A program made the translations under genes and the position numbers. This document shows positions 4,492 to 19,000 of a stretch of DNA of 64,000 nucleotides, piece after piece. The stretch's first letter is position 1; each line of letters opens with the position of its first letter. The notes beneath the pieces were generated by a model, which had not been told where the DNA came from, did no database searches, and saw only the letters and a program-made list of their open reading frames with translations. This DNA is from Fontisphaera persica (GTDB taxonomy: Bacteria > Verrucomicrobiota > Verrucomicrobiia > Limisphaerales > Fontisphaeraceae), in assembly GCF_024832785.1 (NCBI RefSeq), contig NZ_CP116615.1, positions 62,001-126,000 of the forward strand. The letters are read 5' to 3'.

Positions 4492-5780
4492 TATCGTCCC
4501 ACGCTTTTGTAGATGAAGCCGAGGCGTTCCATTTCGGCGGGGTCAAAGAGGTTGCGCCCGTCGAAGAGTATGGGATGGCTGAGGGTTTTGCGGGCGCGCT
4601 CGAGGTCGAGCTTTTTGAATTCCTCCCATTCGGTGGCGATGACCAGCGCATCGCAGCCCTCGGCGACGGCGTTCATGTCGTCCACGTATTCCACGTCGGG
4701 CAGGACGGCCCGTGCTTTGGGCATGGCCTTGGGGTCATGCACGCGCAACCGCGCCCCCTCTTTGAGCAGGCGCTGGCACAGCTCGATGGCGGGGGACATG
4801 CGGATGTCATCCGTGTTTTGTTTGAAAGCCAGCCCCAGCACGCCCAGCGTTTTGCCTTTGAGCACCCAGAGGGTGTCGGTGATTTTTTTAATGAAGCGGT
4901 CCATTTGGGCGGCGTTGATGCGCTGCACCTCGCGCAGCAGGTGGAAAGGGCAGCCCAAATCTTCCGAGATGCGAATGAAGGCGCTCAAGTCCTTGGGGAA
5001 ACAACTGCCGCCGAAGCCGATGCCGGCGTTGAGGAAGGCCCGGCCGATACGTTTATCCATGCCGATGCCGTTGGCAACTTCCTCCACGTTGGCGCCGGAG
5101 GCCTCGCAAATGGCGGCCACGGCGTTGATGTAGGAAATCTTGAGCGCGAGGAAGGAATTGGCGGCGTGTTTGATAAGCTCGGCGGAATTGATGTCCGTGA
5201 CGATGATGGGGGCGTTGAAAGGGGCGTATAGCTCCTTCATGGCGGCCACGGGACGCGGCGAGCGCACGCCGATGACGATGCGGTCTGGCTTGAGGAAATC
5301 CTCGACGGCAAACCCTTCGCGCAGGAATTCCGGGTTGCTGACGACATCAAACTCCACCCTGGCCTTGCAATAGCGTTTGATGGTTTCGGCGACTTTTTCG
5401 CCGGTTTTGACGGGGACGGTGCTTTTGTCCACCACGATTTTGTAGGAGGTCATGGCGGCGGCGATGTCGCGGGAGACGCCCTCCATGAAGCTCAAATCCA
5501 CCGAGCCATCCGGCAGCGGGGGAGTGGGCACTGCAATGAAGATGATGTCGGCGCGGTCCACGCCTTCCTTGGTGGAGGTGGTAAAGTCCAGGCGGCCGGC
5601 CGCCTTGTTGCGTTGCACCAGCTCTTCCAGTCCTGGCTCATAAATCGGCATTTGTCCTGCCTGGAGGGCGGCAATTTTGGCGGCATCGCAATCCACGCAA
5701 ACCACCTGATGGCCTACCTCCGCAAAACAGGTGCCGGTCACCAAACCTACGTAACCCGTTCCAATAATGCACAGGCGCAT
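4491..5780 (-). CDS. ugd: UDP-glucose 6-dehydrogenase
   Basis: 429 residues from the ATG at 5780. The open frame is longer, but MRLCIIGTGYVGLVTGTCF is the family start with the NAD-binding GXGXXG. The catalytic cysteine lies in FGGSCFPKDL (about residue 259), preceded by the substrate-binding FLNAGIGFGGS segment. The C-terminal UDP-binding domain has GLAFKQNTDDIRMSPAIEL. It oxidises UDP-glucose to UDP-glucuronate with 2 NAD+, feeding acidic exopolysaccharide or the epimerase at 517-1470. The gene precedes and overlaps the Nudix gene. Length and motifs are normal for the family. Confidence 0.95.
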   Translation of the reverse strand: MRLCIIGTGYVGLVTGTCFAEVGHQVVCVDCDAAKIAALQAGQMPIYEPGLEELVQRNKAAGRLDFTTSTKEGVDRADIIFIAVPTPPLPDGSVDLSFMEGVSRDIAAAMTSYKIVVDKSTVPVKTGEKVAETIKRYCKARVEFDVVSNPEFLREGFAVEDFLKPDRIVIGVRSPRPVAAMKELYAPFNAPIIVTDINSAELIKHAANSFLALKISYINAVAAICEASGANVEEVANGIGMDKRIGRAFLNAGIGFGGSCFPKDLSAFIRISEDLGCPFHLLREVQRINAAQMDRFIKKITDTLWVLKGKTLGVLGLAFKQNTDDIRMSPAIELCQRLLKEGARLRVHDPKAMPKARAVLPDVEYVDDMNAVAEGCDALVIATEWEEFKKLDLERARKTLSHPILFDGRNLFDPAEMERLGFIYKSVGR

Positions 5781-5864
5781 AGTGCGGCGTAGGCTAGCGA
5801 GGGGCGGCTTGCGGCTCAAGCACTTTCCCTTGAAGCCTGCGCGCATCGGCGGTATTTATCTGCC

Positions 5865-7091
5865 ATGCAGCCATGGCGAAGAGAGCGGGGGGCGTGTTCC
5901 CATTGCGGGCGCGCCGTGCTGGGCGTGGTGATTTTGGTCATTATTTTGCTGTCGCTGTTGCGTTCGATGGCGCAGCCGGCCAGCGCTGGCGCGAGTCTTT
6001 ACGCGCGATGGAAAAATGGGCCGCCGGCGGATGCCGGTTTCTTTCCGATTGCGGTATGGCTGCAGAATCCCAGCAAGGCCGAGCGCTACAAGGCGGCGGG
6101 TTTCAATGTGTATGTGGGGTTGTGGCGCGGCCCCACGGAGGCGCAACTGGCGGCGCTCAAGGCCGCGGGGATGAAGGTGATTTGCCATCAGAACGAGGTG
6201 GGGTTGAAGCATTTGGAGGACCCCACCATCATTGGTTGGATGCACGGGGACGAGCCGGACAACGCGCAATCGCTGGGGCAGGGCAAGGGCTATGGGCCGC
6301 CGATTCCGCCCGCCAAAATTGTGGAGGACTACCAGCGCCTGCGCGCGGCGGACCCCACGCGTCCGGTGTTGCTGAACCTGGGCCAGGGCGTGGCGTGGGA
6401 CCGCTGGCATGGGCGCGGGGTGCGCACCAATCACCCGGAAGATTATCCGGAATACATCAAGGGCTGTGACATTGTTTCCTTCGATATTTACCCTGTGGCC
6501 CACAGTCACCCTGACGTGCAAAACAATCTCTGGTATGTGGCGCGCGGCGTGGAGCGGTTGAAACAATGGAGTCGCCCGGAGCAGGTGGTCTGGAATTGCA
6601 TCGAGTGCACGCGCATCAGTTCCACCAACAAGGCCACCGCCGCGCAGGTGCGCGCCGAGGTTTGGATGTCGCTCATTCACGGATCACGCGGCCTGATTTA
6701 TTTTGTGCACGAATGGAATCCCCGGTTCAATGAATCGGCGCTGTTGGACGATGCCGAGCTGCTGCCGGCGGTCACGGAGATTAATCGCCAGATTCACGCG
6801 CTGGCGCCGGTGCTCCATCAGCCGCCCCTCCCGCAGGCGGTGCGCGTGACCACCGAGCCGGCGGAGGTGCCAGTGGCTGTGGCGGCCCACCGGCACGAGG
6901 GTGCCTTGTATATTTTTGCGGTGGCCATGCGCAACCAGCCTGTGAAAGCCGTCTTCACTCTGCAAGCGGCGGGCCGTGCCGCGCCTGTGGAAGTTCTGCA
7001 TGAAAACCGGCAGCTTCCTGTGACCAACGGCACTTTTACAGACACCTTTGCCGGGTACGGGGTGCATTTGTATCGCTTGCCCTTGCGGTGA
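5865..7091 (+). CDS. Membrane-anchored TIM-barrel glycosidase-like protein
   Basis: A 408-residue protein with a basic N-terminus and one strong transmembrane helix (about residues 18-35, AVLGVVILVIILLSLL), so it is probably an inner-membrane-anchored periplasmic protein. The rest reads like a beta-galactosidase/GH42-like TIM barrel: FFPIAVWLQNP, YKAAGFNVYVG, IIGWMHGDEPDN (a strand-4-type Glu), CDIVSFDIYPV, and VVWNCIECTRIS with a second Glu, followed by a small beta-sandwich (EVPVAVAAHRHEGALYIFAV). Two carboxylates on barrel strands fit a retaining glycoside hydrolase, but the family and substrate cannot be fixed from sequence alone. It is divergent from ugd, with 84 bases between the two start codons. 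Confidence 0.6.
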   Translation: MQPWRRERGACSHCGRAVLGVVILVIILLSLLRSMAQPASAGASLYARWKNGPPADAGFFPIAVWLQNPSKAERYKAAGFNVYVGLWRGPTEAQLAALKAAGMKVICHQNEVGLKHLEDPTIIGWMHGDEPDNAQSLGQGKGYGPPIPPAKIVEDYQRLRAADPTRPVLLNLGQGVAWDRWHGRGVRTNHPEDYPEYIKGCDIVSFDIYPVAHSHPDVQNNLWYVARGVERLKQWSRPEQVVWNCIECTRISSTNKATAAQVRAEVWMSLIHGSRGLIYFVHEWNPRFNESALLDDAELLPAVTEINRQIHALAPVLHQPPLPQAVRVTTEPAEVPVAVAAHRHEGALYIFAVAMRNQPVKAVFTLQAAGRAAPVEVLHENRQLPVTNGTFTDTFAGYGVHLYRLPLR

Positions 7092-7130
7092 GCAGCGCAA
7101 GCCCTGCCGGTCACAAAGGGGGCCGGAGTT

Positions 7131-9962
7131 TCACGTGCCGCAGGCGGCGAGCTGGAAGGCCAGTTGTTGGGCCACAGTGGGGGGAAGTGGCACGCGCTGA
7201 GCCAGTTTTTCCGTGGTGCGCGCATCCACTTGGAATTTTTCTCCCATGACGACGCTGAACCAGCGCTGGCGGTCCATGACGACGCGATACAGTTTTTCGT
7301 CCTGGGTTTCTGCGAGGAAAGGCAGATAGACCCGAATGGGCTGGCCGCACCGTTCGACTTTGGCTCCGATGCGGTCCACCCTGCCGGTGCGTTGTTCGAG
7401 GGTGCTTGGATTCCAGCAAAGGTCGTGGTGGATGACGTAACGGCAAAACCGGTGCAGGTCCACTCCTTCCGACATGACACTGCTGGCAATCAGGATTTCC
7501 GGAAAGAAAGGGCTGTTGAAGGCGAGCATGAGGGTCTGCCGGGTTTCAGGTCTTACCTTGCCATTAACGAGGCGCACGTTAGGAAGCAACTTCTCGGGAG
7601 GGGTGCCTTGTTGCTCATCGAGGCTGATGGTTTCCTGAACTTCACGGCCTGCAAGGTTGCCGGTTTGGATGCTATTGATGGCATTAAGATAACCCTCGCG
7701 TTCACTTTTGGCACAGCGCCGCTCCAGAAACTCAAAAAAACCCTCCAGCAAATCGCGCAGGCAGGCTCCGGAGCTGTCTTTGGTCGTAAAGGCCTGCTGC
7801 ACGGCAGCGGCGTCCGTTTTGCCGGGGGAGAGGGGAAAAAAGCGCACCAGAAAAGAAGGAGTGCGCAAAAAACGGCGGACGATTTCTTGCAGCGTAACTT
7901 TATAGCCCGCGAGGGCAGGATGCTCCTTCAGAATCCTGCTTAATTCCGCATCGCAGGCCTGGCGGAGAGGTGAGTTGGACTTGAAGAAACGCTGGCCAAG
8001 GAGTTCCAGCTTCATCATGGATTCTTGTGGTTTACACTGGAGTTTCTTGGCGGCCAGCGAGGTAATTTCTTCGGTCAACAAGTTGGAAATAACCTGGCGC
8101 AAGGCGCGTCCGGTGGCCAGGTAATGGCAGAAGACGACCACCTTTTCACCTTGGCGCCAGGCCTCCAGCACGCGCTGAGCGGTGGCTTTGACTTTGGGGT
8201 GAGTGGCCGAGTCGCGATGGTCCCGGAGAGGCAGGGTTTTGGTGAGTTGATCAAGATACCAACGAGCTACGGGGTCCACCTCCGCCGGGGAGGCAAGCGG
8301 CTCCTCATCGCCGTCCAGGCCTTCCCAGTGGGCGTGGCGGGTATGCAAAAAAGCTTCAAAACTGGAGGCCAACCCCTCCGCAAAAATGGGCCGTGACTCG
8401 GGCGTGCAGGCGGTGGCCCGGGCGGCCAGGAGGAAAGGCAGCAAGGCTTCGTTGGACACTTCAATGCCGGCTTCGGTATCCTCCGGGCAGTCATGGATAA
8501 TAGCTTTGCCGGGCAATAATTCCCGCCGTGGCAGCCCATTCCAGGTGCGTGACTTCAAGTGTCTAATGACCCACGGACGCAGGGATTGTTCAGCTTCGCG
8601 CATGCGCTCAAACGTGCGTCTAAAGCTTGCCAGGAGGTTTTCCACAACCGCTGGTTTATGGCTGGCAACCTGAATCTTTTCCCACCAAGCGACCACCTCG
8701 TGGAGGCCAAATTTTTCCTCGCCAATGACCAAATCCTCGGGGCGCAGATCCCCCCAGGTTTTGTCGAAATTGATGGCGGCAGCTTGTGCGGCATCGAGCT
8801 TTTGCCGCAGCTCGCGGAGCTGATGTTGAAAAGCTGCGCGGCTCATGGCGGGGCCATATGGAGGTTCCCAGGCAATGCCATCGAATCTCTCCAGGACTGA
8901 ACAAAGCTCATGATGGCCCAGTTGGAAGGGAGTGGCCGTGAGGAAAAGCATGCGCTCGAAAATGCCGCCCAGCACGCCGCGCCGGATCTCCTCGGCATCG
9001 AGTTCGGCATCTGGATTTTGGAACAGCCCGGCAAGCTGGGTGGAGGGATTCTTGAGATGGTGAGCCTCATCCAAAATCAGCAGCGGCAGCCGGAGTTGCA
9101 ATCGCTGCAGGCAGGCCCGCCACACTTGCTTGAGCGCATCGCCAAGAATGTGCCGGGCGCGCTCAATGCGTTCCTCGTAGTTGACCGAAAGACGCAGGGG
9201 GATGTTTTTCAATGCCTCATAAACGTGGGAAGTGTCGAAATCGTGGAGGACCTGAATGATTACCCTGGGCACAGGGTCATCATCCGTAAGGGGATTGGCA
9301 TCCCCTTCGGGGTCGATGCCATGTTCGTGCAAGACCGTAAGCCATTGTTCCGGAGGGTGGGATAGAAGGACTTGCCAAATATCGGCGGCTTTATTTTGCA
9401 CTCCTTGGAGGAACAATAGTCTGCCCAAGCAACGATATAGTCCCCGCTCCAGTTGCCTGCGTTGGTGGCGCCCCCGCAAGGCCCGTTGGATGACTGCCAG
9501 CTTAATCCAGGCATCAGCGCGGCCGTGGCCCAGACCCCGATGCATGGCCCCGTGGGTGAGAAATATGATGGAATGGCGGTGTTCTGGTGGATCATCCAGC
9601 AATTTAAGGAACTCCACGGCTGAATCTGCCGAGGCCGCCCGTACCTTGTGGCGAAGAGCGGCAGGCAAACACTCTTCCTGAAAAGTCCTGAAATCGGACG
9701 GCCACTTTTCCTTCAAGCTGGGCGGAACCATCACCACCACGGGCCGGCGTCTGGCATCCGACAGGGCCACTGAAGCAGCCACAGCCAGGGCCACGAAAGT
9801 TTTGCCCATGCCGACTTCATCGGCCAGCACCACGCCGGGCTGGTGGGCCAGCCGGTGAAGAATGGCCGCAGCGGTCTGTTGCTGTCGGCGGGCGTCGGTT
9901 TCCGTTATACGTCCCGGCACGTAAAGCCTGAGGTCCTTTGCCAAGGGATGCCAGGTGTTCAT
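7131..9962 (-). CDS. SNF2/RapA-like superfamily 2 helicase of a putative defence operon
   Basis: 943 residues. Walker A is ADEVGMGKTF (about residues 47-56). Walker B/motif II is LILDEAHHLKNP (near residue 297). Motif III is FLTATPFQLGHHEL (near 340). The C-terminal lobe has SSVMSEGVDLHRF and the motif VI string STLEQRTGRVDRIG (near 860), which is characteristic of Snf2/RapA-type translocases. About 450 residues separate the two lobes, a large insertion like that of DISARM DrmD or Dpd-type helicases. The start ATG overlaps the stop of the upstream PLD gene by four bases (ATGA), so the two are translationally coupled. Its expected role is ATP-driven translocation on nucleic acid with the PLD protein as the likely nuclease partner. 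No nuclease motif was seen in the helicase itself. Confidence 0.85.
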   Translation of the reverse strand: MNTWHPLAKDLRLYVPGRITETDARRQQQTAAAILHRLAHQPGVVLADEVGMGKTFVALAVAASVALSDARRRPVVVMVPPSLKEKWPSDFRTFQEECLPAALRHKVRAASADSAVEFLKLLDDPPEHRHSIIFLTHGAMHRGLGHGRADAWIKLAVIQRALRGRHQRRQLERGLYRCLGRLLFLQGVQNKAADIWQVLLSHPPEQWLTVLHEHGIDPEGDANPLTDDDPVPRVIIQVLHDFDTSHVYEALKNIPLRLSVNYEERIERARHILGDALKQVWRACLQRLQLRLPLLILDEAHHLKNPSTQLAGLFQNPDAELDAEEIRRGVLGGIFERMLFLTATPFQLGHHELCSVLERFDGIAWEPPYGPAMSRAAFQHQLRELRQKLDAAQAAAINFDKTWGDLRPEDLVIGEEKFGLHEVVAWWEKIQVASHKPAVVENLLASFRRTFERMREAEQSLRPWVIRHLKSRTWNGLPRRELLPGKAIIHDCPEDTEAGIEVSNEALLPFLLAARATACTPESRPIFAEGLASSFEAFLHTRHAHWEGLDGDEEPLASPAEVDPVARWYLDQLTKTLPLRDHRDSATHPKVKATAQRVLEAWRQGEKVVVFCHYLATGRALRQVISNLLTEEITSLAAKKLQCKPQESMMKLELLGQRFFKSNSPLRQACDAELSRILKEHPALAGYKVTLQEIVRRFLRTPSFLVRFFPLSPGKTDAAAVQQAFTTKDSSGACLRDLLEGFFEFLERRCAKSEREGYLNAINSIQTGNLAGREVQETISLDEQQGTPPEKLLPNVRLVNGKVRPETRQTLMLAFNSPFFPEILIASSVMSEGVDLHRFCRYVIHHDLCWNPSTLEQRTGRVDRIGAKVERCGQPIRVYLPFLAETQDEKLYRVVMDRQRWFSVVMGEKFQVDARTTEKLAQRVPLPPTVAQQLAFQLAACGT

Positions 9963-12046
9963 GGTGCATCCTCCGCCAGGGCGCGTTTGACGTAAGCCGC
10001 CAGCCTGGGGTGATCATTCAAAGCGGCCGCGTTGATCTGGGTGGAAATTTCCCGGATAATCTCCTGCAACGCCTCCCGGATACGTTCGGCCGGCAGGCAG
10101 CCGGGCGTTGTTTGAGGCTGAACGCGCTTGAGTTCAAGACACAACTCAGCCAGGAGGAAGCAGCGCTCCGGTTCGGAGCGTGCTTCCTGGCTGATGGCTT
10201 TGGCGAGAGCCAGGACGCCAATGGGGCCGTGCAGGCGCCAGGTGAGGGCCGCTTCCGAAGCCACCGGCATTTGCAATCGGCGACGCAGGGCCGTCAAGGC
10301 GTTGGAGACTCTTCGGGTGCGCTGCAAAAGAAAGGAGGACGTGTTGACCCGGCGGTGGGGGTCAAGGGCCGTTTCCGTGGTTATCGTGGAAGATTTTTGC
10401 GAGCGTCGCAACCAGCGATGGAGCACCTGATGCAGCGGCCTGGCGGAGCTTAAAATCTCCATCAGGACCTCCAGAGGCAGGTTGTTTAATTCAGGTGGAG
10501 GAGGTAATGCCGTGCTGGCAATGATATTCACCGGCCAGTATGCGCCATAATGGCAACCCTGCCAGGTTACGCGGAAATAGGAAGGGGGGCGTTCGCGGGG
10601 CCAGCGGAGGCGGAAAGTCAGGGGGTTTCCCTGGGCATTCCAGTGGCTGGCATCGGTAAAACGCTCCTGGTCATCTTCTGCAAATAATTTCCAGCCAGCG
10701 GGAGGAGTGTTGGTGAAAGCGAATTCAACATAAAGATGCTGTTGTTCATCCAAGCCGACATTGGCATGGCCAAAGGCGGGGGGCAGCAAATCAAATTCTG
10801 CCGGGGCGGTGTCTTCCTGCTCGTCCTCCTGCGGTTGAAAACGAAGGGTCCAGTCGTGGGGAAATTCCTCCACCGGCAGACAGGCGTGTTGCCATGCCCG
10901 GTCCGCGCGAGGGTTTTGTTGGTAATCCACCAGGTACGCGAGATTGGCCTCGAGATTACGGGTTTTATCGAGACCGTAACCTGGCGAGGTGAAATTGCTG
11001 GAGCCAATCATGTAGCACAACCATCGGTTGCTGCGCAGCCACAGGGATTTGGCATGAATAGGGCGTCCTTCTTCAGGAAAATCGTCGGGAGCCGGTTTCA
11101 ACCAGCCAAAACATATCTTAACGCGGTTTTTGTCGTCCGGCGGCACTTTGGCCAGGGCCGCCGGGGCGTGAACCAGCGCGGCCCGCTCTCCTGGAATTTC
11201 TTCTGCAGTCACATCATACTGCACGTAAACTTTGCCCCGCTGCTTTAAGAATTTCAGGAGAGTCTTGGCTGGCCGGTTGCACGCATGGGGCGGGTCAAAG
11301 AAGGGACTCAACACATAAGCCTCATCCGGGGGAGGATGGCCGGTCCAAAGTTTTCCTAGTTGTGTAAAAACATCATCCCGGTTGGGACCGGTTAGCACAG
11401 CATAAACACGGGGGATGCCCCACGAGCGGGGGTATTCCTTGATGCCCCATTCCCGGGTCATGGATTTGACTCGCTCAAGGAACACGCGCCAGCGGGACAC
11501 GGCCGGACTATCGCTACCGCCGGGTGGATTGGCGGTGGAAACAGCTTCGTCCAGAAATAGTAGGAAATCATCCAGCACGGGCAGGGGTATCTGACTTTCG
11601 GGATGGTAGTCGAGCACGCCAAAAATCTCATGATTACGACGATAGCCATCCTCGGTCAAATTGGCTGAGGCCACAATGAGGCGGGCATGGCGGCTCCAGA
11701 GCAGCAGGGACACCTTGGCGTGAAGAATGGCAGAGCCGGACAATCGGGCTGGCAGAAGGTCCCAGCGCAGGTTGCGGGTGCCTTTGGCATGGTGCTGGTC
11801 CACCAGGACGGCAGCGCAAAGGAGCTGAGCAATTTTTTCCTCGCGCTCTACCAGATAAGCTGCGCCATCCTCGCTGGCATTGCTCTCCAGGTGAACAAAA
11901 CGGGCCAGACATTCTTCCTCAAACAAGACGGGCGAGAAGGTGAAAGTGGTGGCAACACAGCCAATGGCATCGCCGGCCTCCTCCGGAGGCACCCAGGCAT
12001 CCAATATTTTGGCGCGGCCGGGCAGGGCTGGTCTGGGTTTGCTCAT
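9959..12046 (-). CDS. Phospholipase D-fold protein (putative nuclease) of the defence operon
   Basis: About 695 residues with two PLD half-sites. The first is HAKVSLLLWSRHARLIVASA followed by NLTEDGYRRN. The second is HAKSLWLRSN, with IGSSNFTSPGYG downstream. Each has HxK plus the S-x-N element; the aspartate of canonical HxKx4D is not kept. Such paired sites form one active centre in BfiI/NucC-unrelated PLD nucleases and in helicase-associated PLD proteins such as DrmC and DpdK. The C-terminal 200 residues are helical with no recognised domain. The start at 12046 lies two bases after the stop of the upstream gene; the frame also opens at 12082, which would overlap that gene by 34 bases. The stop overlaps the helicase ATG. 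Nuclease activity is inferred from the fold. Confidence 0.78.
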   Translation of the reverse strand: MSKPRPALPGRAKILDAWVPPEEAGDAIGCVATTFTFSPVLFEEECLARFVHLESNASEDGAAYLVEREEKIAQLLCAAVLVDQHHAKGTRNLRWDLLPARLSGSAILHAKVSLLLWSRHARLIVASANLTEDGYRRNHEIFGVLDYHPESQIPLPVLDDFLLFLDEAVSTANPPGGSDSPAVSRWRVFLERVKSMTREWGIKEYPRSWGIPRVYAVLTGPNRDDVFTQLGKLWTGHPPPDEAYVLSPFFDPPHACNRPAKTLLKFLKQRGKVYVQYDVTAEEIPGERAALVHAPAALAKVPPDDKNRVKICFGWLKPAPDDFPEEGRPIHAKSLWLRSNRWLCYMIGSSNFTSPGYGLDKTRNLEANLAYLVDYQQNPRADRAWQHACLPVEEFPHDWTLRFQPQEDEQEDTAPAEFDLLPPAFGHANVGLDEQQHLYVEFAFTNTPPAGWKLFAEDDQERFTDASHWNAQGNPLTFRLRWPRERPPSYFRVTWQGCHYGAYWPVNIIASTALPPPPELNNLPLEVLMEILSSARPLHQVLHRWLRRSQKSSTITTETALDPHRRVNTSSFLLQRTRRVSNALTALRRRLQMPVASEAALTWRLHGPIGVLALAKAISQEARSEPERCFLLAELCLELKRVQPQTTPGCLPAERIREALQEIIREISTQINAAALNDHPRLAAYVKRALAEDAP

Positions 12047-12048
12047 GG

Positions 12049-13416
12049 TTAAAGCAAATGAAGATCGTGAGCGAACTGCCACAGTGAGCGGGCCCGATAA
12101 TAATGAACGTATTCCTGGCTGTCCTGGGCATGTTCATCCGTCCGGTACTCCGGACGGATGATGAAAGTACCGTCGTCGAACCGTTCAAACCATGGATTTT
12201 TGCCATGGGGTGGCTTCAACCGCTGGGTTTGACGGTGATGCTCCATCAGGCGCTCGACCCATTCACTCACCGTGCTGGATTCGCCCAGCCTCCCAAAGGC
12301 ATCCCGGAACCGAGCTGCCTGGTCCACTGGCTCTAAAAGCGACATGACCTCAGTAAAAGACGCGGGCACTATGCGCGCGGCGCGCTGGACGGCTGGCAAA
12401 GCTGCGAGCGATTTGACCGAGACTTTTTTCGCGCCTTGGCGGGTAAGCTCGCACAGACAGTCTTGAAAGGCGTCCTGGCAGAGCCGGCAGAATGCCTCGT
12501 AAGCAAGAATGGCCTCCAGCAGTTGGCGCAGGCCCGGGCTGGCCCTTGATTTTAAAGCTTGATGCAGTTCTTTTTCTGAACCGGTTTTTTCCCAAATCTC
12601 CTGGCCGAAGGAGGAAATAAGAAACTCCAGGTACTCACCGCGAAATCCGTGGTCATCGCGCAGCAGCGCGTCGGATATAAAACGGGCTTCTTTCATCCCT
12701 GCGTCATAAGGCGAAAGATGCCGGGAGAAAAATTCCCAGCCGGCCCACGTGGGGCTGCGTGCGGTGGCCCCTTTTTTCAATCCGGCGTCCAAGGCCTCCT
12801 TAAGCTGGGCCAGGAAGGCTTGACCGGGTCCAGCTTCCGTTCCCACGAAGCCTTCCAGGTGTTGTTCTTTGCTCCAAACCAGCAAGAGTTCATAGCCCAC
12901 TTCCCCCAGGCGGTCCCCTTGGGCCACGCCGAGGGTCCGGGCAAGCTGGCGATAAACTCCGTGAAAACCAAAAATGCTCGGGGTTTTCAAATACCTTTTG
13001 GACGAAAGCGGCACCCCCTCGGAAATAGCTTTGGCCGCCTTCTGATTGCCCGGAATACCAATATGTTTCTCTTTATCCAGGGTGCGCACTAGGCCTTCCA
13101 CCACGTACCACTCAAAAACCAGCCAGGGCGGGCTGAGGCGGTCTGCCGCGAGTGCCTCTTCGTCATAATCCTGGCATACCACCAAGGAAACAGCCATGGC
13201 GGTAAGGAAGCGCGGATGACGCTGGCGCTCGCGCACCCCCGGAGCCAGGCGCACGGCCAAAGCATCGGCCAAGGCTTCCGTTCCCAGGGGGTCAATGCCG
13301 CCTTCGCCCATTTCAACTGGATCTTTTTCGGTCAAGAATGGCCCAATGACATCCTTTTCCATTTTCTGGCAAACAGCGCTATTTGGTGCTTTTTGCTGAT
13401 AGATGCTAAAAAGCAT
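12049..13416 (-). CDS. Uncharacterised first gene of the helicase/PLD operon
   Basis: Up to 455 residues, mostly helical, soluble, with no signal peptide and no known catalytic motif that I can see. The segment GGIDPLGTEALADALAVRLA followed by PGVRERQRHPRFLTAMAVS resembles the opening of proteins seen as companions of SNF2-helicase/PLD pairs (a DUF6361-like feel, low confidence). A cysteine-containing stretch YEAFCRLCQDAFQDCLCEL (about residues 300-320) might bind metal. The C-terminus is polar and basic. Candidate starts are 13416 (longest), 13362 (MEKDVIGP) and 13311 (MGEGGIDPLG). None has a clear ribosome-binding site, and the 13416 ATG sits inside an inverted repeat, which favours a downstream start. 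Its position first in a compact three-gene unit suggests a sensor or complex-assembly role (inference). Confidence 0.7.
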   Translation of the reverse strand: MLFSIYQQKAPNSAVCQKMEKDVIGPFLTEKDPVEMGEGGIDPLGTEALADALAVRLAPGVRERQRHPRFLTAMAVSLVVCQDYDEEALAADRLSPPWLVFEWYVVEGLVRTLDKEKHIGIPGNQKAAKAISEGVPLSSKRYLKTPSIFGFHGVYRQLARTLGVAQGDRLGEVGYELLLVWSKEQHLEGFVGTEAGPGQAFLAQLKEALDAGLKKGATARSPTWAGWEFFSRHLSPYDAGMKEARFISDALLRDDHGFRGEYLEFLISSFGQEIWEKTGSEKELHQALKSRASPGLRQLLEAILAYEAFCRLCQDAFQDCLCELTRQGAKKVSVKSLAALPAVQRAARIVPASFTEVMSLLEPVDQAARFRDAFGRLGESSTVSEWVERLMEHHRQTQRLKPPHGKNPWFERFDDGTFIIRPEYRTDEHAQDSQEYVHYYRARSLWQFAHDLHLL

Positions 13417-13417
13417 C
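13402..13417. promoter_or_regulatory. Perfect inverted repeat upstream of or at the start of the defence operon
   Basis: GATGCTAAAAAGCATC is a six-base perfect stem with a four-A centre, lying between the K+ channel stop (13450) and the first defence gene. It has no T-run, so it is not an intrinsic terminator on either strand. Its place at the head of the operon suits an operator for a small dimeric regulator, but no regulator gene is adjacent. A variant, ATGCTAAAAAATTAGCAT, occurs at 33451-33468 ahead of the moxR operon. Confidence 0.35.
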
Positions 13418-13449
13418 CATGTGTTACCGTTTGTTGTAAATCACAAAAA

Positions 13450-14208
13450 CTACTTCGGGGGTTGGTGGTGTTGAATGACAAGGCGAAGTGCATCAATTTT
13501 TTTCTCCATTTCCTGCAAGCGAGCGGTGAGTTCATCGGGTGAGGGAGGCGCGGATTCGTTGCTGCCCAGGAGGAGGGAGGCGATGAGGCCGCTGAGGCCG
13601 GCGAACATGCCGACGCCGCAAATCATGAGGAGGACGCCAACAAGGCGGCCCTCGGTGGTCACGGGGTATTTGTCGCCATAGCCGACGGTGGTGGCGGTGG
13701 TGACGCTCCACCAGAGGGCATCTTCGGCGGTTTGGATGTTACTCTGGGGCTGGCGCTCGCACACGAGGATGGCCACGGAGGAGAAGGTGATGAGGAGGAA
13801 GGCCATGAGGCCCAGGGAGGCGGCGCCGCCCTGTCGTTTGTTTTGAAAGATGAGCAGGAAGATGCGGTGCAGGGAGCGGATGCCACGCAGGAGGCGGATA
13901 ACACGCAGCACGCGGATGAGGCGGCCCCAGCGGAGGGCGTCCACGTTGGGGATGCAGGCCAGCAAGTCAATCCAGCCCCATTTCATGAAGTCGCGTTTGG
14001 ATTCTGCACGGTGCAGGCGGACGAGAAAGTCCACCAGCAGGACGCCGCAAACGATTGTGTCCATGGTCTGGATGACCTGGCTAACTTCGGGGGGCAGGGT
14101 GAGGAGGGTGTCGGCGGCGAGGGCAGCCAGGAGAACGAGGCTAAGGAGGAGGATGGCCAGTTGGAAGGGGCCGATTTGGGTGTCAATCTGGGTTTGTTTG
14201 TTTTGCAT
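13450..14208 (-). CDS. Voltage-gated potassium channel
   Basis: A 252-residue six-transmembrane channel. S1 is near residues 14-34. The S4 voltage sensor is RWGRLIRVLRVIRLLRGIR (about 95-115) with regularly spaced arginines. The pore helix leads to the selectivity filter TVGYGDKYPVT (about 180-190), followed by S6 (VGVLLMICGVGMFAGLSGLI). The C-terminus (last 35 residues, LTARLQEMEKKIDALRLVIQ) is a short coiled coil that would tetramerise. It conducts K+ across the inner membrane in response to voltage. It precedes the helicase/PLD operon on the same strand, 33 to 138 bases upstream depending on the start used, so read-through into that operon is possible. Confidence 0.9.
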   Translation of the reverse strand: MQNKQTQIDTQIGPFQLAILLLSLVLLAALAADTLLTLPPEVSQVIQTMDTIVCGVLLVDFLVRLHRAESKRDFMKWGWIDLLACIPNVDALRWGRLIRVLRVIRLLRGIRSLHRIFLLIFQNKRQGGAASLGLMAFLLITFSSVAILVCERQPQSNIQTAEDALWWSVTTATTVGYGDKYPVTTEGRLVGVLLMICGVGMFAGLSGLIASLLLGSNESAPPSPDELTARLQEMEKKIDALRLVIQHHQPPK

Positions 14209-14329
14209 GGGGGTGTTTTAGCAAAAGGGCAGGGGTTTTGCACGCGGGAGGCGATATTGGCTTCGTGGTGCCGGGGCGGCATGAGCACTCGTCTCGAGGT
14301 TCAGGGGGATAGGGAGGGGTTGATTACAT

Positions 14330-14360
14330 AAAAAAAGGCCCCTGCGGTGAGGCAGGGGCC
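14330..14360 (-). terminator. Rho-independent terminator after the Gfo/Idh/MocA gene
   Basis: On the minus strand, a nine-base GC-rich stem GGCCCCTGC/GCAGGGGCC (14337-14345 with 14352-14360, six-base loop) is followed by a run of T (A's at 14330-14336 on the plus strand). It lies 33 bases after the stop of the oxidoreductase gene and separates it from the K+ channel gene. This is the clearest intrinsic terminator in the window. Confidence 0.9.
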
Positions 14361-14393
14361 GGGAAGCCGTCGGCACAAGGCCGGGCGATGGGT

Positions 14394-15581
14394 TTAGATT
14401 TTCTTGGGCATTTTGACCCACGCGCCTTTCTTGGACGCGCTCTTGACAGCGGTCTCGATGAAGGCGAGGCCCATCCAGCCGTCTTCGATGTTGGCGTATT
14501 TGCTGCCGTCAATGGTGACTTTGCCGGTGGCTTTCCACTTGCGGATGTCGGCTTCGAAGCAGCGGTGTAGCCGGGCGAAGGCATCGTGGAAGGCCTCGGG
14601 GTGCCCCGGTGGGATGGTGACTTCGTCGAGCAATTCTTTGGGCACGTCCTTGAGGAAGCCGTCGTTGGGCACTACGCAGCCACGCCAGTAAACGCGGTCG
14701 GGCTGGCCCATGAGGCTGATGGTGAGGCTTTCGGGTTCTTCCTGGCGCCAACGGAGGGAGCCTTTGGTGCCGTTGATGCTGATGCCCAAATCGTTCTTGT
14801 GGCCGATGCAAATTTGGGAGGCCCGCACGAGGGCGCGCGCGCCATTGTTCAAACGGCAGTACGTGGTGAAGTGGTCGTCCAACTGGCGGCCGGGCACAAA
14901 AGTTTCGAGCTGGGCCGAGACTTCGGTGACCTCCAGGCCGGTGATGTAGCGGAGCTGCATGAGGGCGTGGGTGCCGATGTCACCGCCGCAGCCGGAGGCG
15001 CCGGCGAGCTTGGGATTGACGCGCCAGGAGGCCTGTTGCTGGCCGGTGTCTTCGAGCTTGGTGGCGAGCCAGCCTTGGATGTAGTAGCTGTCCACCCAGC
15101 GGATTTCGCCCAGCAAGCCGCTGCGCACAATCCAGCGGGCGAAGCGGCTGGTCCAGTGGCCCAGGTAGGTGTGTGCCACGCCAAAGGGCACGCCGGTCTT
15201 GCGCTGCATCTTGACCAGTTCAGTGGCCTGCTTGAGGTTGACGGTCAGGGGTTTTTCGCAGAAGACGGGGATGCCCGCCTTCATGGCCTTCATGGCGGGG
15301 TCAAAGTGGACGTGGTTGGGAGTGACGATGAGCACGTAGTCCAAGCGTTCGTCTTCGGGCAGCTTGGCCTGTTCGGCAATCATTTCATCGTAGGAGCCGT
15401 AACCTTTGATGGGGTAGGGCCATTTCTCGGCTTCTTCGAGCGCGATTTTGGGGTCCGGGAACAAGGCGCCGGCCACCACGCGGCGGGTGCCGTCCATGTG
15501 AATGGCCTTTTGATGGGGATGCACGATGAATGCGCCTTTGCCGCCGCCAATCAATCCGACTTTCAATGGTTTCTGTGACAT
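14394..15581 (-). CDS. Gfo/Idh/MocA-family oxidoreductase
   Basis: 395 residues from the ATG at 15581, which opens directly on MSQKPLKVGLIGGGKGAFIV. This is the NAD(P)-binding Rossmann domain with GGGKGAF. The conserved CEKPLTVNLKQA (about residues 101-112) is the hallmark EKP motif of the family, and the C-terminal alpha/beta domain carries SGCGGDIGTHALMQL with the usual DxxxH-like active-site element (about 210-220). Members oxidise or isomerise sugars, inositols or sugar acids with NAD(P). The frame is open 26 codons further upstream without family similarity. Substrate is unknown. No partner gene is adjacent; the gene stands alone with its own terminator. Confidence 0.88.
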   Translation of the reverse strand: MSQKPLKVGLIGGGKGAFIVHPHQKAIHMDGTRRVVAGALFPDPKIALEEAEKWPYPIKGYGSYDEMIAEQAKLPEDERLDYVLIVTPNHVHFDPAMKAMKAGIPVFCEKPLTVNLKQATELVKMQRKTGVPFGVAHTYLGHWTSRFARWIVRSGLLGEIRWVDSYYIQGWLATKLEDTGQQQASWRVNPKLAGASGCGGDIGTHALMQLRYITGLEVTEVSAQLETFVPGRQLDDHFTTYCRLNNGARALVRASQICIGHKNDLGISINGTKGSLRWRQEEPESLTISLMGQPDRVYWRGCVVPNDGFLKDVPKELLDEVTIPPGHPEAFHDAFARLHRCFEADIRKWKATGKVTIDGSKYANIEDGWMGLAFIETAVKSASKKGAWVKMPKKI

Positions 15582-16004
15582 AAGCAACTTGTGGTTTGTT
15601 CGTTTCTTTGTGTTCAGACCACTGAGCCCCGCCCGGGAAAACCCCCGGAACCACGGCAACCCAGCGCAGGACGTAATGATGTGACCCTAGAAAAACCACG
15701 CCACCGCTTCAAGGATTTTATTTGCAAGAGGTCGCCCCAAGAGGGCGACTGACAGGGGGGAAGAGGTGCCCCAAAAAGGCAGGAATTTGGGTTTGTCAAA
15801 AGGAGGAATTTGTGCATCATGGCATTCGGTGTCAAAAGCATAGGCACCAGCGAAACCCACAGTCATAATAAACCACGATTCCAATCCATTCGCCTGACCT
15901 CCAGAGAGTCACTTCTTGCAGGGGAGGGTGGCGGTTTTATGGGCAGCGTAGCGTGTTGGATGCAGGAAGAAGGGTTGGAGCGGGTGGTGGACTGAAAAAC
16001 TGCC
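15582..16004. other. Intergenic region upstream of the giant secreted-protein gene
   Basis: 423 bases between divergent genes. Contents are a perfect seven-base stem-loop GTCGCCC (15731-15737)/GGGCGAC (15743-15749) without a T-run; a strong Shine-Dalgarno AAGGAGG at 15800-15806 that precedes a 58-codon open frame (15819-15995, listed separately); and otherwise AT-richer sequence that probably contains the promoters. No tRNA or known riboswitch pattern was recognised. Confidence 0.4.
15819..15995 (+). CDS. Possible small leader ORF before the giant gene
   Basis: A 58-codon frame beginning MAFGVKSIGTSETHSHNKPR, preceded at 12 bases by AAGGAGG (15800-15806), one of the strongest ribosome-binding sites in the window. 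Its stop lies nine bases before the ATG of the 5,787-codon gene, a spacing that would allow translational coupling. The peptide resembles nothing I recognise and has a mixed composition without a signal peptide or membrane segment. It may be a genuine leader or upstream ORF, or a chance frame with a chance purine tract. Confidence 0.22.
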   Translation: MAFGVKSIGTSETHSHNKPRFQSIRLTSRESLLAGEGGGFMGSVACWMQEEGLERVVD

Positions 16005-19000
16005 ATGAAAACGCCAACGTTCTTTCGGTGTATCGGCCAGGCATGCACATGGATTTTGCCCTGCTGGCTTTTAGTTGGGAATCTATTGGGGGCCTGTCTG
16101 GCCTCTCCCGCGGGAGTGGTCAGTTGGTGGCCGGGCGAGGGGTGGGCCAACGATTTAATGGGGCGGCATCCGGGGGCGGTGCAGGATGGGGCCATGTATG
16201 ATGCCGGCAAGGTGGGCCGTGCGTTTTATTTTGATGGAGTGGATGATGTGGTGTCGCCCCGGACTTCGGCCTTAACCACGGTCAGCAACACCTTTACGCT
16301 TGAGTTTTGGGCGTACCCTACCAAAGGCCGGAACGCCACGGCTGAGGCCACCAGTGGTTTGCTGGGGCTTAGCGGCCAGCGTTATGCCGTGGCGCCGGAG
16401 AACATTAATTCGGCCAATGTGGTGGGGGCGGGGGTGTCGGTGGGGACCAACGGCATCAGCGTGTTTGAGCATGGGGTCAATTATTTGCCCTCGCTGCTGG
16501 TGTTTGAGACGAATATCACCGGCTGGGTGCATGTGGCCGTGGTGTATGAGAACAAACAGCCCCGGCTGTATCTCAACGGCGAGCTGGTGCGCACCGGCCT
16601 GACCAGCACGCGCACCACCGTGTTTCCTTCCAAGCTTCTCGGCGGTGTTTCGAGCTATGGGTATTATGGCGGCTGGTTGGACGAGGTGACGATTTATGAC
16701 CGGGCATTGTCGCAGGATGAGATAGCGGCCATTTACCAAGCGGATGCGGCGGGCAAGTGCCGGGCTGAGCCGGTGGCGGCACCGGGGGGCATGATGGCAT
16801 GGTGGACGGCGGACAATCACCCGTATGACGTAGCGGGGGTGTATCCGGGAGCTTTGAGCAATGGCGTGGGATATGCCAGTGGGGTTAATGACTTTGCTTT
16901 TGAATTTGATGGGCTGAATGATTTTGTGGTGGTGGGGTCGCTGGCCCTGGGGTTGGAGTTCAGCGTGGAGGGATGGCTCAAACCCGGCTCGTTGGCCAAT
17001 GACATGATGATTTTGTGCCGGGATGACCTGGGCACGGCGCGCAGTTATTATTTCATGGTGGAGGCTTCGGGGGCGTTGGTGGGGTCGGTGGCCGATACCA
17101 ATGGCCAGTTCACCCAATATCGCACGGTGGCAGGAGTGGTGAGCGCGGGCACATGGCAGCATGTGGGATGGGTTTACCAGGGGCAGGGCGGGGCAGGCCA
17201 GAAAATGAAATTTTACGTGAATGGCGCCGTGGTCACGGCCTTGCCGGTGGGTGATTATGATGTGGGAGGGGCGGCCGCACCGGTAGCCTTGGCGGCGCGC
17301 ATCGGGTCAGGCATGGGGGGGAGCCATTGTTTCCATGGGCTGATGGATGAACTGGCAGTGTACGGGCGGGCTTTGGGGGGGGCGGAAATGCAGGCGATAT
17401 ATGGGGCGGGTTTCATGAGTAAAACCAAGCCCAACCCTTACGATGTGCCCTTTGGAGCGGAATTATGGGTGCGGGGCAGTTCGGCCAGCGGCCATGTGAA
17501 TGTGCAAAGGGTGGGATTCAACAACGCGGGGACGGTGCGCCTGCAATCCACGGATAGTGCATACACCAGCGCGCTGACGGTGTCCCCGGGGGCCTTGACT
17601 AATACGCCTCTGGGAGTGTTGACGGTGAATCCAGGGTCTGGGGGGCAGCGGTTTCTTTATGGCGACCTGCTCAATCTGGGGACGGTGAACATCAATTATG
17701 GGACGACGTTCAGCAAGGCGGAGGGAGTGTATGAGAATCAGGGGACGTTCAACATAGCCAGCGGGCAGGAGTTGTCTTTGAGCGGGCAAAGTCAGTGGTT
17801 TCGGCAGGTGGATGGGGCGCTCAACATTCAGGGAGCCTTGACCTTGAACAACGTGAGTCTGAGTTATTTGGGGGGCACAGTGAGCGGGACGCCGCACTTG
17901 ATTAACAGCCGGCTGTTTTTGGGGCTGGGGGCCACCAACGCGGCGAGTTTCATTTTAACTGGCTCCGGCAGCACGTGGGTGGGGGATGTAAAGGCGGGGC
18001 AAAGTCTGTGGGTGCGGGGCAGTGGTGCTGGGGGGCACACCACCATTACGGTGACCAATGGATTTGCCAATGCGGGGACGCTGACGTTGCAGTCGGTGGA
18101 CGCCGGCTATGCGACGGTGTTGGTGGTGAGCGAGGGGGTGGTGACGAATGTGGCGGGAGGCACCATTCATATCAATCAGGGCAATGGAGGCAGCCGGACT
18201 TTTGCGGCAAACTTGCTCAATTTGGGGACGGTGAACATCAATTATGGGACGACGTTCAGCAAGGCGGAGGGAGTGTATGAGAATCAGGGGACCTTCAACA
18301 TTGCCAGCGGGCAGGAGTTGTCCTTGAGCGGGCAAAGTCAGTGGTTTCGGCAGGTGGATGGGGCGCTCAACATTCAGGGAGCCTTGACCTTGAACAACGT
18401 GAGTCTGAGTTATTTGGGGGGGACAGTGAATGGGACGCCGCATTTAATTAACAGCCGGCTGTTTTTGGGGCCGGGGGCCACCAACGCGGCGAGTTTCATT
18501 TTAACTGGCTCCGGCAGCACGTGGGTGGGGGATGTAAAGGCGGGGCAAAGTCTGTGGGTGCGGGGCAGTGGTGCTGGGGGGCACACCACCATTACGGTGA
18601 CCAATGGATTTGCCAATGCGGGGACGCTGACGTTGCAGTCGGTGGACGCCGGCTATACGACGGCGTTGGTGGTGAGCGAGGGGGTGGTGACGAATGTGGC
18701 GGGAGGCACCATTCATATCAATCAGGGCAATGGAGGCAGCCGGACTTTTGCGGCAAACTTGCTCAATTTGGGGACGGTGAACATCAACTATGGGACGACG
18801 TTCAGCAAGGCGGGCGGGTTATATGAGAACCAGGGGACCTTCAATATTGCCAGCGGGCACACGCTTTCGTTGAGCGGACAGAATCAGGTGTTCCGGCAGG
18901 CGGATGGGGTGTTGAATGTTCAAGGGGGGCTGGATTTGGACAGTGTGACCTTTGATTATGTTTCGGGCATCATTCAAGGGACACCCTATTTGGTGAATTC

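What the first reader, a model, noticed from the sequence alone, without database searches (positions are those of the whole stretch)
7131..13416. Compact three-gene helicase / PLD / unknown operon resembling an anti-phage system
Seen: three minus-strand genes with 2-base and 4-base junctions. The first encodes an uncharacterised protein of about 450 aa, the second a PLD-fold protein with two HxK...SxN half-sites, and the third a 943-aa SNF2/RapA-like helicase with intact Walker A, DEAH and LEQRTGRVDRIG motifs and a long inter-lobe insertion. Established: helicase plus PLD nuclease pairs occur in DISARM (DrmD/DrmC), Dpd (DpdE/DpdK), Mokosh, and from memory in three-gene systems such as Azaca. 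Inference: this is a self-contained defence module. No methylase, no DrmA/DrmB and no DUF1998 protein is present, so it is not canonical DISARM. If it is Azaca-like, the first gene would be the least characterised part.
Basis: partly seen in the sequence, partly recalled or inferred. Interest (0 to 1): 0.75.

Follow-up and report, generated by a model that had tools for sequence, protein, structure and literature searches.

The report
Mobile three-gene helicase–nuclease defence cassette
A small mobile block of three genes (an all-helical protein of unknown fold, a probable DNA-cutting enzyme and a DNA motor) that many unrelated bacteria carry as one fixed unit, most probably to destroy invading DNA; it is a new relative of a little-studied known phage-defence system called Azaca.

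Summary
In detail: three minus-strand genes, A (12049-13362), B (9959-12046) and C (7131-9962), joined by a 2-nt gap and a 4-nt overlap. Gene A matches no Pfam, NCBIfam or PADLOC model at an accepted score. Homologues gave 71 loci in at least 11 named phyla. A is followed by B in 71 of 71, and C follows in 62; eight contigs end before C, one long contig lacks it. The three proteins are co-inherited (distance correlations 0.96-0.97).

The locus is variable: a same-genus genome has collinear flanks with 324 bp where the window has 6,970 bp, and no A or B match. Catalytic residues are invariant: two HxK…N…E half-sites in 60 of 60 B proteins; Walker A, DEAH and QRxGRxDR in 52 of 52 C proteins. B has a Tdp1-like two-half PLD fold; A is all-helical without PDB match.

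Architecture equals Azaca and PADLOC's PDC-M27. Gene A is homologous to PDC-M27A-like proteins (HHalign 96-99%), only marginally to ZacA/DUF6361. Verdict: a new lineage of an Azaca/PDC-M27 superfamily, most likely an ATP-driven DNA-cleaving defence complex without its own methylase. Defence is inferred, not shown.

The parts
12049..13362 (-). gene A: 437-aa all-helical protein, family without an accepted hit in the libraries scanned; proposed recognition/adaptor subunit (ORF opens at 13416)
   Evidence: no accepted family hit; homologues; alignment; AF2 pLDDT 93.9
13282..13293 (-). gene A N-terminal DPLG motif (residues 24-27; D 68, P 68, L 59, G 69 of 69)
   Evidence: aligns to D-[E/P]-LG of ZacA/DUF6361 and PDC-M27A-like proteins
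12190..12237 (-). gene A C-terminal H376-x3-Q380-x2-K383-...-GK-x2-W391; helix plus beta-hairpin, possibly a winged helix
   Evidence: (H, Q, W 69 of 69; K383 and K388 68 of 69, G387 66 of 69), secondary structure; the winged-helix idea rests on weak VIA rows, Z 3.5-4.6,
9959..12046 (-). gene B: 695-aa two-half PLD (HKN-type) phosphodiesterase with extra C-terminal beta and helical regions
11627..11722 (-). gene B half-site 1: H109-K111-N129-E140
   Evidence: 60 of 60, spacing 2/18/11 in all 60
10949..11056 (-). gene B half-site 2: H331-K333-N351-E366
   Evidence: 60 of 60
7131..9962 (-). gene C: 943-aa SNF2/RapA-like SF2 ATPase with long stretches in lobe 1 and lobe 2
9798..9821 (-). gene C Walker A region DEVGMGKT (residues 48-55)
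   Evidence: G51, G53, K54, T55 52 of 52
9060..9071 (-). gene C DEAH box (residues 298-301)
   Evidence: 52 of 52
7371..7394 (-). gene C motif VI QRTGRVDR (residues 857-864)
   Evidence: Q, R, G, R, D, R 52 of 52
7074..14043 (.). stretch that has no blastn match in the collinear locus of a same-genus genome (holds A-B-C and most of the neighbouring K+ channel gene, of which small remnants are found there by protein search)
   Evidence: window 4090-7073 and 14044-15722 align to L116 with 324 bp between; for the remnants

Best explanation
A mobile, self-contained three-subunit anti-invader system of an Azaca/PDC-M27 superfamily. Proposed action: C is a dsDNA-translocating SNF2-type motor. B is a phosphodiesterase whose two HxK...N...E half-sites form one composite PLD active site that cuts DNA through a phosphohistidine intermediate (established knowledge for the PLD superfamily; not shown here). 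A is an all-helical recognition/adaptor subunit that tells the complex what to engage and couples motor to nuclease. With no methylase in the unit, self/non-self must come from a feature of the invading DNA (modified bases, ends, replication or recombination intermediates) and not from host methylation by the unit itself. The closest characterised mechanism is SauUSI, where target recognition switches on an SF2 ATPase that translocates and a PLD nuclease shreds the DNA, but here split over three proteins. Shown: the conserved unit, co-inheritance, a variable locus, intact catalytic residues, the predicted PLD fold. Inferred: complex formation, DNA as substrate, defence, and the recognition role of A.
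For: A-B-C order in every locus where it could be seen but one; closely coupled junctions; co-inheritance of the three proteins, Mantel r 0.960-0.973 against a highest permuted value of 0.197. Patchy: gene A in 4 of 387 phylum genomes including its own, one of them only a fragment; locus without the cassette in a same-genus genome; cassette GC3 0.62-0.66 against 0.71-0.82 in 12 of 13 other window ORFs, the thirteenth at 0.61; the window copy groups with Acidobacteriota and Planctomycetota copies. Catalytic residues invariant. PLD fold with Tdp1-like HKN sites. The only PDB sequence hit of the B profile at E<=1 is SauUSI 7CLG, E 0.0015. Same architecture as Azaca and PDC-M27A-like loci, with A homologous to the latter. 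DISARM DrmD/DrmMI-cluster relatives within six ORFs in 10 of 71 loci (81, names from 103).
Against: No activity data. Only a minority of loci have recognised defence neighbours, and no background rate was measured; the window copy itself lies between a K+ channel gene and a gene without an accepted Pfam hit, not in an evident defence island. No copy was found in viral contigs (two short patterns only), phage or plasmid records, so the vehicle is unknown. Nothing shows that A binds DNA.
Confidence: 0.68

Rival explanations
1. Same parts, but a Hachiman-like genome-integrity sensor: C surveys DNA and holds B inactive with the help of A; phage-induced damage or unusual DNA releases B, which degrades all DNA and kills or stops the infected cell (abortive infection).
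For: Hachiman is a helicase-nuclease complex in which the helicase senses DNA damage and frees the nuclease (start of the abstract in the listings; one methods passage). The absence of any modification gene in the unit fits. SNF2 motors suit surveillance.
Against: By recollection Hachiman has neither a PLD nuclease nor a third protein; nothing in the sequence tells this from restriction-like action.
Confidence: 0.2
2. A DNA-repair or DNA-protein-crosslink processing module: B acts like Tdp1 on 3' adducts, with C as remodeller, helping to mend phage or topoisomerase damage and not to destroy DNA.
For: Best structural matches of B are Tdp1 (Z 22.6, 326 residues), with the same H-K-N spacing in half-site 1.
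Against: A phospholipase D (7e0m, Z 22.4) ties with Tdp1, and vaccinia F13 (21.3) and PLD4 (20.6) follow within 2 Z units, so the match is to the fold, not the function; presence in 4 of 387 phylum genomes and absence in the same genus are not the pattern of repair genes; fixed pairing with an SNF2 motor and gene A matches Azaca.
Confidence: 0.07
3. A mobile-element or plasmid-competition function (anti-plasmid or anti-conjugation) and not an anti-phage one.
For: SauUSI is described as a barrier to horizontal gene transfer (abstract); the cassette itself comes and goes.
Against: None direct.
Confidence: 0.15

Closest known systems
PDC-M27 (PADLOC candidate system, PDC-M27A/B/C)
   Same: Three genes in the order A-PLD-SNF2 (two loci found with the PDC-M27A model); helicase C best PADLOC hit is PDC-M27C (125 bits); gene A family homologous over its length to those PDC-M27A-like proteins (HHalign 96.5% with two; 98-99% with three); 19 of 69 gene A homologues hit PDC-M27A with E up to 10, best 3e-5.
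   Different: The window's gene A itself is not hit at E<=10; B scores only 21.7 bits to PDC-M27B. No paper with the name was found (0 papers).
Azaca (ZacA-ZacB-ZacC)
   Same: Same order: DUF6361 - PLD - helicase (annotated on Cronobacter and Haliscomenobacter plasmids; DUF6361 in all three full ZacA-model proteins scanned). B hits ZacB (46 bits), C hits ZacC (94 bits). A and ZacA share an N-terminal D-x-LG...I...L-x-PG...R motif (HHalign 37-43%, P about 3e-4; reversed controls P 0.1 or higher).
   Different: 0 of 69 gene A homologues match Pfam DUF6361 at E<=0.1; ZacA model hits 6 of 69 with E up to 10, best 0.0095.
SauUSI (type IV restriction enzyme, PDB 7CLG)
   Same: PLD nuclease plus SF2 translocase; only PDB sequence match of the B profile at E<=1; HxK site, ATP-dependent cleavage (passages).
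   Different: One polypeptide with an SRA target-recognition domain and one HxK per chain (a dimer makes the site), with H(X)K(X)4E; here three proteins, both half-sites in one chain, no SRA domain in the Pfam scan.
DISARM (DrmD helicase, DrmC PLD)
   Same: SNF2 helicase and PLD protein; C hits DrmD (99 bits PADLOC, 121 bits NCBIfam).
   Different: Far below the 610-bit DrmD cut-off; DrmC match 22.9 against 133; no DrmA, DrmB or methylase among the genes scanned. DISARM relatives are instead neighbours in some loci.
Tyrosyl-DNA phosphodiesterase (Tdp1)
   Same: Two-half PLD fold in one chain; H-K-N active site; at the place of the Asp of classical HKD sites B has no Asp in half 1 (0 of 60) and Asp in 1 of 60 in half 2; K-to-N distance 18 in half 1 as in K265-N283.
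   Different: 11-14% identity, no known functional link; B residues 410-695 lie outside the match.

Membership tests
Azaca | three adjacent genes in the order ZacA-type, PLD, helicase | tested here: met
   for this family; for Azaca loci
Azaca | first protein belongs to ZacA / Pfam DUF6361 | tested here: not met
   0 of 69 DUF6361 at E<=0.1; ZacA 6 of 69 with E up to 10, best 0.0095, window protein none; only a local profile similarity
Azaca | PLD and helicase are ZacB and ZacC | tested here: inconclusive
   ZacB 46 bits over part of the protein; ZacC 94 bits but PDC-M27C and DrmD score higher
PDC-M27 | first protein is PDC-M27A | tested here: inconclusive
   window protein no hit; 19 of 69 homologues hit, best 3e-5 (39); profile comparison 96-99% with PDC-M27A-like proteins (62, 79)
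PDC-M27 | helicase is PDC-M27C | tested here: inconclusive
   best PADLOC hit, 125 bits, three stretches, the best only 84 residues long
DISARM | DrmD/DrmC reach curated cut-offs; DrmA, DrmB and a methylase present | tested here: not met
   121 of 610 bits and 22.9 of 133 bits; of the flanking genes, Pfam gives a K+ channel for 13450-14208, no hit above cut-off for 5865-7091 and a Gfo/Idh oxidoreductase for 14394-15659; other window ORFs were not scanned
Dpd | helicase is DpdE with the other Dpd genes | tested here: not met
   85 bits against a 500-bit cut-off
Mokosh | Mokosh-type helicase and nuclease genes | tested here: inconclusive
   no Mokosh model among the hits shown (best 25 of 44 for C); not looked for further
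SauUSI-type (type IV) restriction enzymes | PLD nuclease, SF2 ATPase and SRA recognition domain in one chain | tested here: not met
   separate genes; no SRA domain in the Pfam scan
any anti-phage system | measured protection against phage | not testable with these tools
   needs bench work

The most novel reading that the evidence does not exclude
A widespread but unnamed type of ATP-dependent, methylase-free DNA-destruction complex, in which an all-helical protein with no counterpart found among solved structures is the specificity subunit, reading invading DNA through a conserved H-Q-K-GK-W winged-helix-like end. Azaca, PDC-M27 and this lineage would then be one superfamily of three-subunit restriction-like machines with diverged recognition subunits.
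Probability: 0.3. Interest if true: 0.72.

Novelty: new variant of a known kind. Interest (0 to 1): 0.52.

Why it matters
It adds a distinct lineage to a defence superfamily for which I found no reported mechanism (searches, in an open-access library), and joins two separately catalogued systems (Azaca and the candidate PDC-M27) to it, firmly for PDC-M27 and tentatively for Azaca, through their least understood subunit. Many of its carriers are Planctomycetota, Verrucomicrobiota and Acidobacteriota, and the libraries scanned do not name its first gene. Invariant residues in all three proteins make the mechanism directly testable.

Tried and rejected
Pfam, NCBIfam and PADLOC on gene A: no accepted hit for the window protein (best Pfam row DUF3565, E 0.28). 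Weak Pfam matches of its homologues (TarS_linker, NepR and others) are scattered over one to four of 69 members and were set aside as chance. PDB sequence search with the gene A profile: best E 0.076, myosin, rejected. Fold searches of the gene A model: best Foldseek E 0.4 (PDB) and 0.54 (viral), TM about 0.1; VIA-align best Z 5.2, within the range that the tool calls common for helical models. Several unrelated VIA rows there are, by my recollection of those proteins, winged-helix domains (MukF, O-methyltransferases, an RNA polymerase III subunit, APC2), Z 3.5-4.6; kept only as a hint.

The K+ channel gene upstream (13450-14208) was considered as a fourth part and dropped: remnants stay with the backbone in the same-genus genome, it has relatives in other genomes of the order, and it is not among the neighbour clusters of three or more loci.

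Repair function: rejected as main reading because of the patchy distribution.

Immediate neighbours of the cassette (117 of 119 proteins; two over 1,200 aa left out): mixed. Four match DrmD models and four GajB models at E<=1e-10 (one protein may match several models; only 25 of 143 matching families were listed), but sulfatases, transporters and oxidoreductases also occur. No background set was scanned (farther genes were listed but not searched), so I claim no enrichment. The eight proteins were picked, mostly because they recur, and are no random sample.

Viral contigs (two short patterns), phages and plasmids gave no gene A relative; a partial PLD relative on a Methylocystis plasmid (65, 76) led to one more PDC-M27A-like protein, assigned by me from position and alignment. 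One search searched G387 and G388 without a positive control in the same call; the same query did match other genomes, and one search carried its own control. Paper searches: 'Azaca/ZacA/ZacB' (31) was swamped by unrelated words; 'DUF6361' (60) and 'PDC-M27' (100) gave none; 'Azaca/ZacC' (121) and one search gave listings, of which I opened passages only.
Full report
WHAT IS THERE. The window is bases 62001-126000 of a 4.73-Mb single-contig genome. Its phylum is not named by the tools; a same-phylum genome (G168) is the record titled 'Lentisphaerae bacterium' (L068), which suggests Verrucomicrobiota in the GTDB sense (my inference). Three minus-strand genes lie between a plus-strand gene ending at 7091 and a K+ channel gene at 13450-14208. 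They are A (12049-13362, 437 aa from the ATG supported by homology; the ORF opens at 13416), B (9959-12046, 695 aa) and C (7131-9962, 943 aa). A and B are 2 nt apart; B and C overlap by 4 nt.

FAMILIES. C carries SNF2/Helicase_C domains. Its best PADLOC models include PDC-M27C (125 bits), DrmD (99) and ZacC (94); its NCBIfam matches (DrmD 121 of 610 bits, DpdE 85 of 500, RapA 78 of 576) are far below cut-off. B is a weak PLDc_2 match (25.6 bits, cut-off 27), with ZacB (46 bits) best in PADLOC. A has no accepted hit (best Pfam row E 0.28; none in PADLOC at E<=10 or NCBIfam at E<=1).

DISTRIBUTION. Gene A was found in 4 of 387 genomes of the phylum, its own included; one of the four is only an N-terminal fragment, next to a reverse-transcriptase-like and a transposase-like ORF (named by my reading). 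A scan of one genome for each of 84,980 species with two short peptide patterns gave 71 loci; this undercounts. L020 and L068 are the same DNA as the unnamed-genome loci L005 and L007, so the set besides the window is 71 loci (69 plus L005 and L007); two of these, L012 and L013, are 99.97% identical over 6,188 bp although binned to different families, so they may be one locus. With profile searches (counts in 118), A is followed by B on the same strand in 71 of 71. C follows in 62. Eight contigs end before C could be seen (L027, L034, L035, L053, L054, L056, L061, L065; one search counts 63 with C because of a helicase fragment elsewhere on L065). L024 has no C match within the 8 kb held downstream on a long contig. 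Several loci show split reading frames (L012, L013, L029, L030, L033, L039, L042, L063, L080), which may be decay or draft-assembly error; in L063 a transposase ORF (IS1380-like by my reading) sits inside C.

CO-INHERITANCE AND TRANSFER. In 49 rows with all three proteins near full length (48 loci and the window), pairwise distance matrices correlate at 0.973 (A-B), 0.960 (A-C) and 0.969 (B-C); the highest of 999 permutations was 0.197. A FastTree tree places the window with an Acidobacteriota and a Planctomycetota copy (99*), then a Verrucomicrobiota copy. Eleven named phyla need 16 label changes (least possible 10), fewer than shuffled labels (mean 22.0): phylum signal exists, but transfer between phyla is likely. 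The tool warns that bins and paralogues can mimic transfer, and one Pirellulaceae genome (PLA7) holds two divergent copies (L038, L076).

VARIABLE LOCUS IN THE WINDOW'S OWN GENUS. In same-genus genome G387, window 4090-7073 and 14044-15722 align at 83.7% and 85.9% to L116 5439-8422 and 8747-10390, with 324 bp between them against 6,970 bp in the window. G387 and same-family G388 have no match to A or B (own genome as positive control); C was not searched there. The K+ channel remains in G387 as small remnants, so the cassette lies between the backbone gene at 5865-7091 and the K+ channel. Gain in the window's line or loss in G387's cannot be told apart. Cassette GC3 is 0.62-0.66; 12 of 13 other window ORFs checked (taken as genes, not all verified) are 0.71-0.82, the thirteenth (50875-53481) 0.61. 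The G165 copy (L005) lies between a MoxR/DUF58/vWA-type gene run and a large membrane-type gene (named by my reading of the translations).

CATALYTIC PARTS. B: H109, K111, N129, E140 and H331, K333, N351, E366 are invariant in 60 of 60; spacing in the first half is identical in all 60. The Asp of classical HxKx4D sites is absent in half 1 (0 of 60) and present in 1 of 60 in half 2, where Glu is commonest (18 of 60). The AF2 model (pLDDT 90.6) matches Tdp1 best (Foldseek E 2e-10; VIA Z 22.6, 3.7 A, 326 residues, model 4-409), with other two-half PLD enzymes close behind, one of them tied. Tdp1's active site is H263/K265/N283 and H493/K495/N516 (passage of PMC5750209); K-to-N is 18 residues in the first half of both (21 in Tdp1's second half against 18 here in 58 of 60). 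BfiI has, by recollection, a similar site. B residues 410-695 were not covered by these matches. The only PDB sequence hit of the B profile at E<=1 is 7clg_A, E 0.0015. The SauUSI paper gives 7CLG as its accession and describes a PLD nuclease, SF2 translocase, helical coupler and SRA domain, with target recognition activating translocation and shredding of the DNA (PMC7913695, abstract and passages). C: Walker A (G, G, K, T), DEAH, TAT and QRxGRxDR are invariant in 52 of 52, with long stretches in both lobes.

GENE A. AF2 pLDDT 93.9; nearly all helix, with a hairpin at 392-402. No match with E<=0.001 in the PDB or viral library and none of clear Z. Invariant in 69 of 69 include D14, G27, R46, R51, E84, Y124, F131-G132-F133, Y137, E289, H376, Q380, W391, R423 and F430. 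The C-terminal helix plus hairpin with H-Q-K-GK-W could be a winged-helix reader of DNA; this is a guess from weak structural rows.

RELATION TO AZACA AND PDC-M27. Of 69 gene A homologues, 19 hit PADLOC PDC-M27A (best 3e-5) and 6 hit ZacA (best 0.0095), counting E up to 10; the window protein hits neither. Searching 194 genomes with each model gave 2 PDC-M27A-like genomes and 4 ZacA genomes, one of them a weak fragment. The three full ZacA proteins match Pfam DUF6361; the two PDC-M27A-like ones do not. DUF6361-PLD-helicase is the annotated order on Cronobacter and Haliscomenobacter plasmids. Profile comparison: gene A against two PDC-M27A-like proteins 96.5%, against three 98.3% local and 99.4% global. 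Against ZacA/DUF6361 proteins it is 38.9% with three and, with twelve, 37-43% local (P about 3e-4) and 15-54% global, while reversed controls give P 0.1 or higher. So A is homologous to PDC-M27A-like proteins, and the tie to ZacA is probable but not proven, resting on the N-terminal D-x-LG...I...L-x-PG...R motif. I read the three as one superfamily with the window in a lineage of its own, nearer PDC-M27.

NEIGHBOURS. Among 505 neighbouring ORFs of the 71 loci clustered by BLAST (single linkage), the largest clusters span 7, 6 and 6 loci. Scanned members name them DrmD-like helicases (L064, 3.7e-199) and DrmMI-like methylases (L039, L058, L072, each below 1e-200), and, from sequence and the Pfam tally, DUF2779 proteins. 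L072 also has a type IV restriction enzyme, 2.7e-263. DrmD- or DrmMI-cluster members occur in 10 of 71 loci (L033, L039, L042, L058, L061, L063, L064, L065, L072, L080). No background was measured.

MECHANISM. Taken together: a motor, a nuclease-type enzyme with one composite active site, and a conserved third protein, kept together, in a locus that comes and goes, and without a modification enzyme. I think A directs and C drives B onto invading DNA, which is cut, as in SauUSI but with the functions on separate chains. A Hachiman-like suicide sensor is the main rival. Steps shown are conservation, linkage, variability, predicted fold and active-site residues; everything about activity is inferred.

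NOVELTY. Architecture and two of three parts are of a known kind; the first gene's family has no accepted model in Pfam (2025 models), NCBIfam (June 2026) or PADLOC (2023) as scanned here. Papers: Azaca appears only in tables or method lists in what I saw (passages of PMC10952713, PMC12926258, PMC12278908); no paper on DUF6361 or PDC-M27 in the open library searched. PMC12839542 (passages) treats BREX-related helicase-HKD systems; the passages I saw do not describe this one. DefenseFinder models could not be run.

Noticed in passing
L063:15155-16722: A transposase ORF of 490 aa (IS1380-like by my reading) lies inside the helicase gene of this cassette copy.
   Followed up: partly
L012:4668-10855 and L013:9986-16173: Two bins assigned to different Planctomycetota families hold the cassette at 99.97% identity, each with gene B read as two adjacent ORFs in one frame: a binning error or a very recent transfer.
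   Followed up: partly
L008:9651-12625: An N-terminal gene A fragment next to a reverse-transcriptase-like ORF and a transposase-like ORF, with a 1432-aa methylase-like ORF nearby (names by reading): a decayed or reshuffled defence locus.
   Followed up: no
L024:13290-21293: A and B present but no helicase C match on a long Planctomycetia contig; the only exception to the three-gene rule that was seen.
   Followed up: partly
L022, L041, L044, L048, L049, L057 (flanks): A cluster of DUF2779-type proteins (function unknown) recurs beside the cassette in 6 loci (Pfam DUF2779 in 4 of 117 immediate neighbours) and may be an accessory or another defence gene.
   Followed up: no
L038 and L076: One Pirellulaceae genome (PLA7) holds two divergent copies of the cassette from different branches of the tree.
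   Followed up: no
window 16005-33368: A single 5787-aa ORF with long internal repeats and a signal-like start; a giant surface-type protein by reading, not studied.
   Followed up: no
L092:3000-13313 and L103:3613-7076: PDC-M27A-like units in other settings: one (A-B-C) followed by a DUF1016-like ORF at 12141-13313 (named from memory), one (A-B) on a Methylocystis plasmid downstream of a 7-cyano-7-deazaguanine synthase gene, with any helicase not visible because the record ends.
   Followed up: partly
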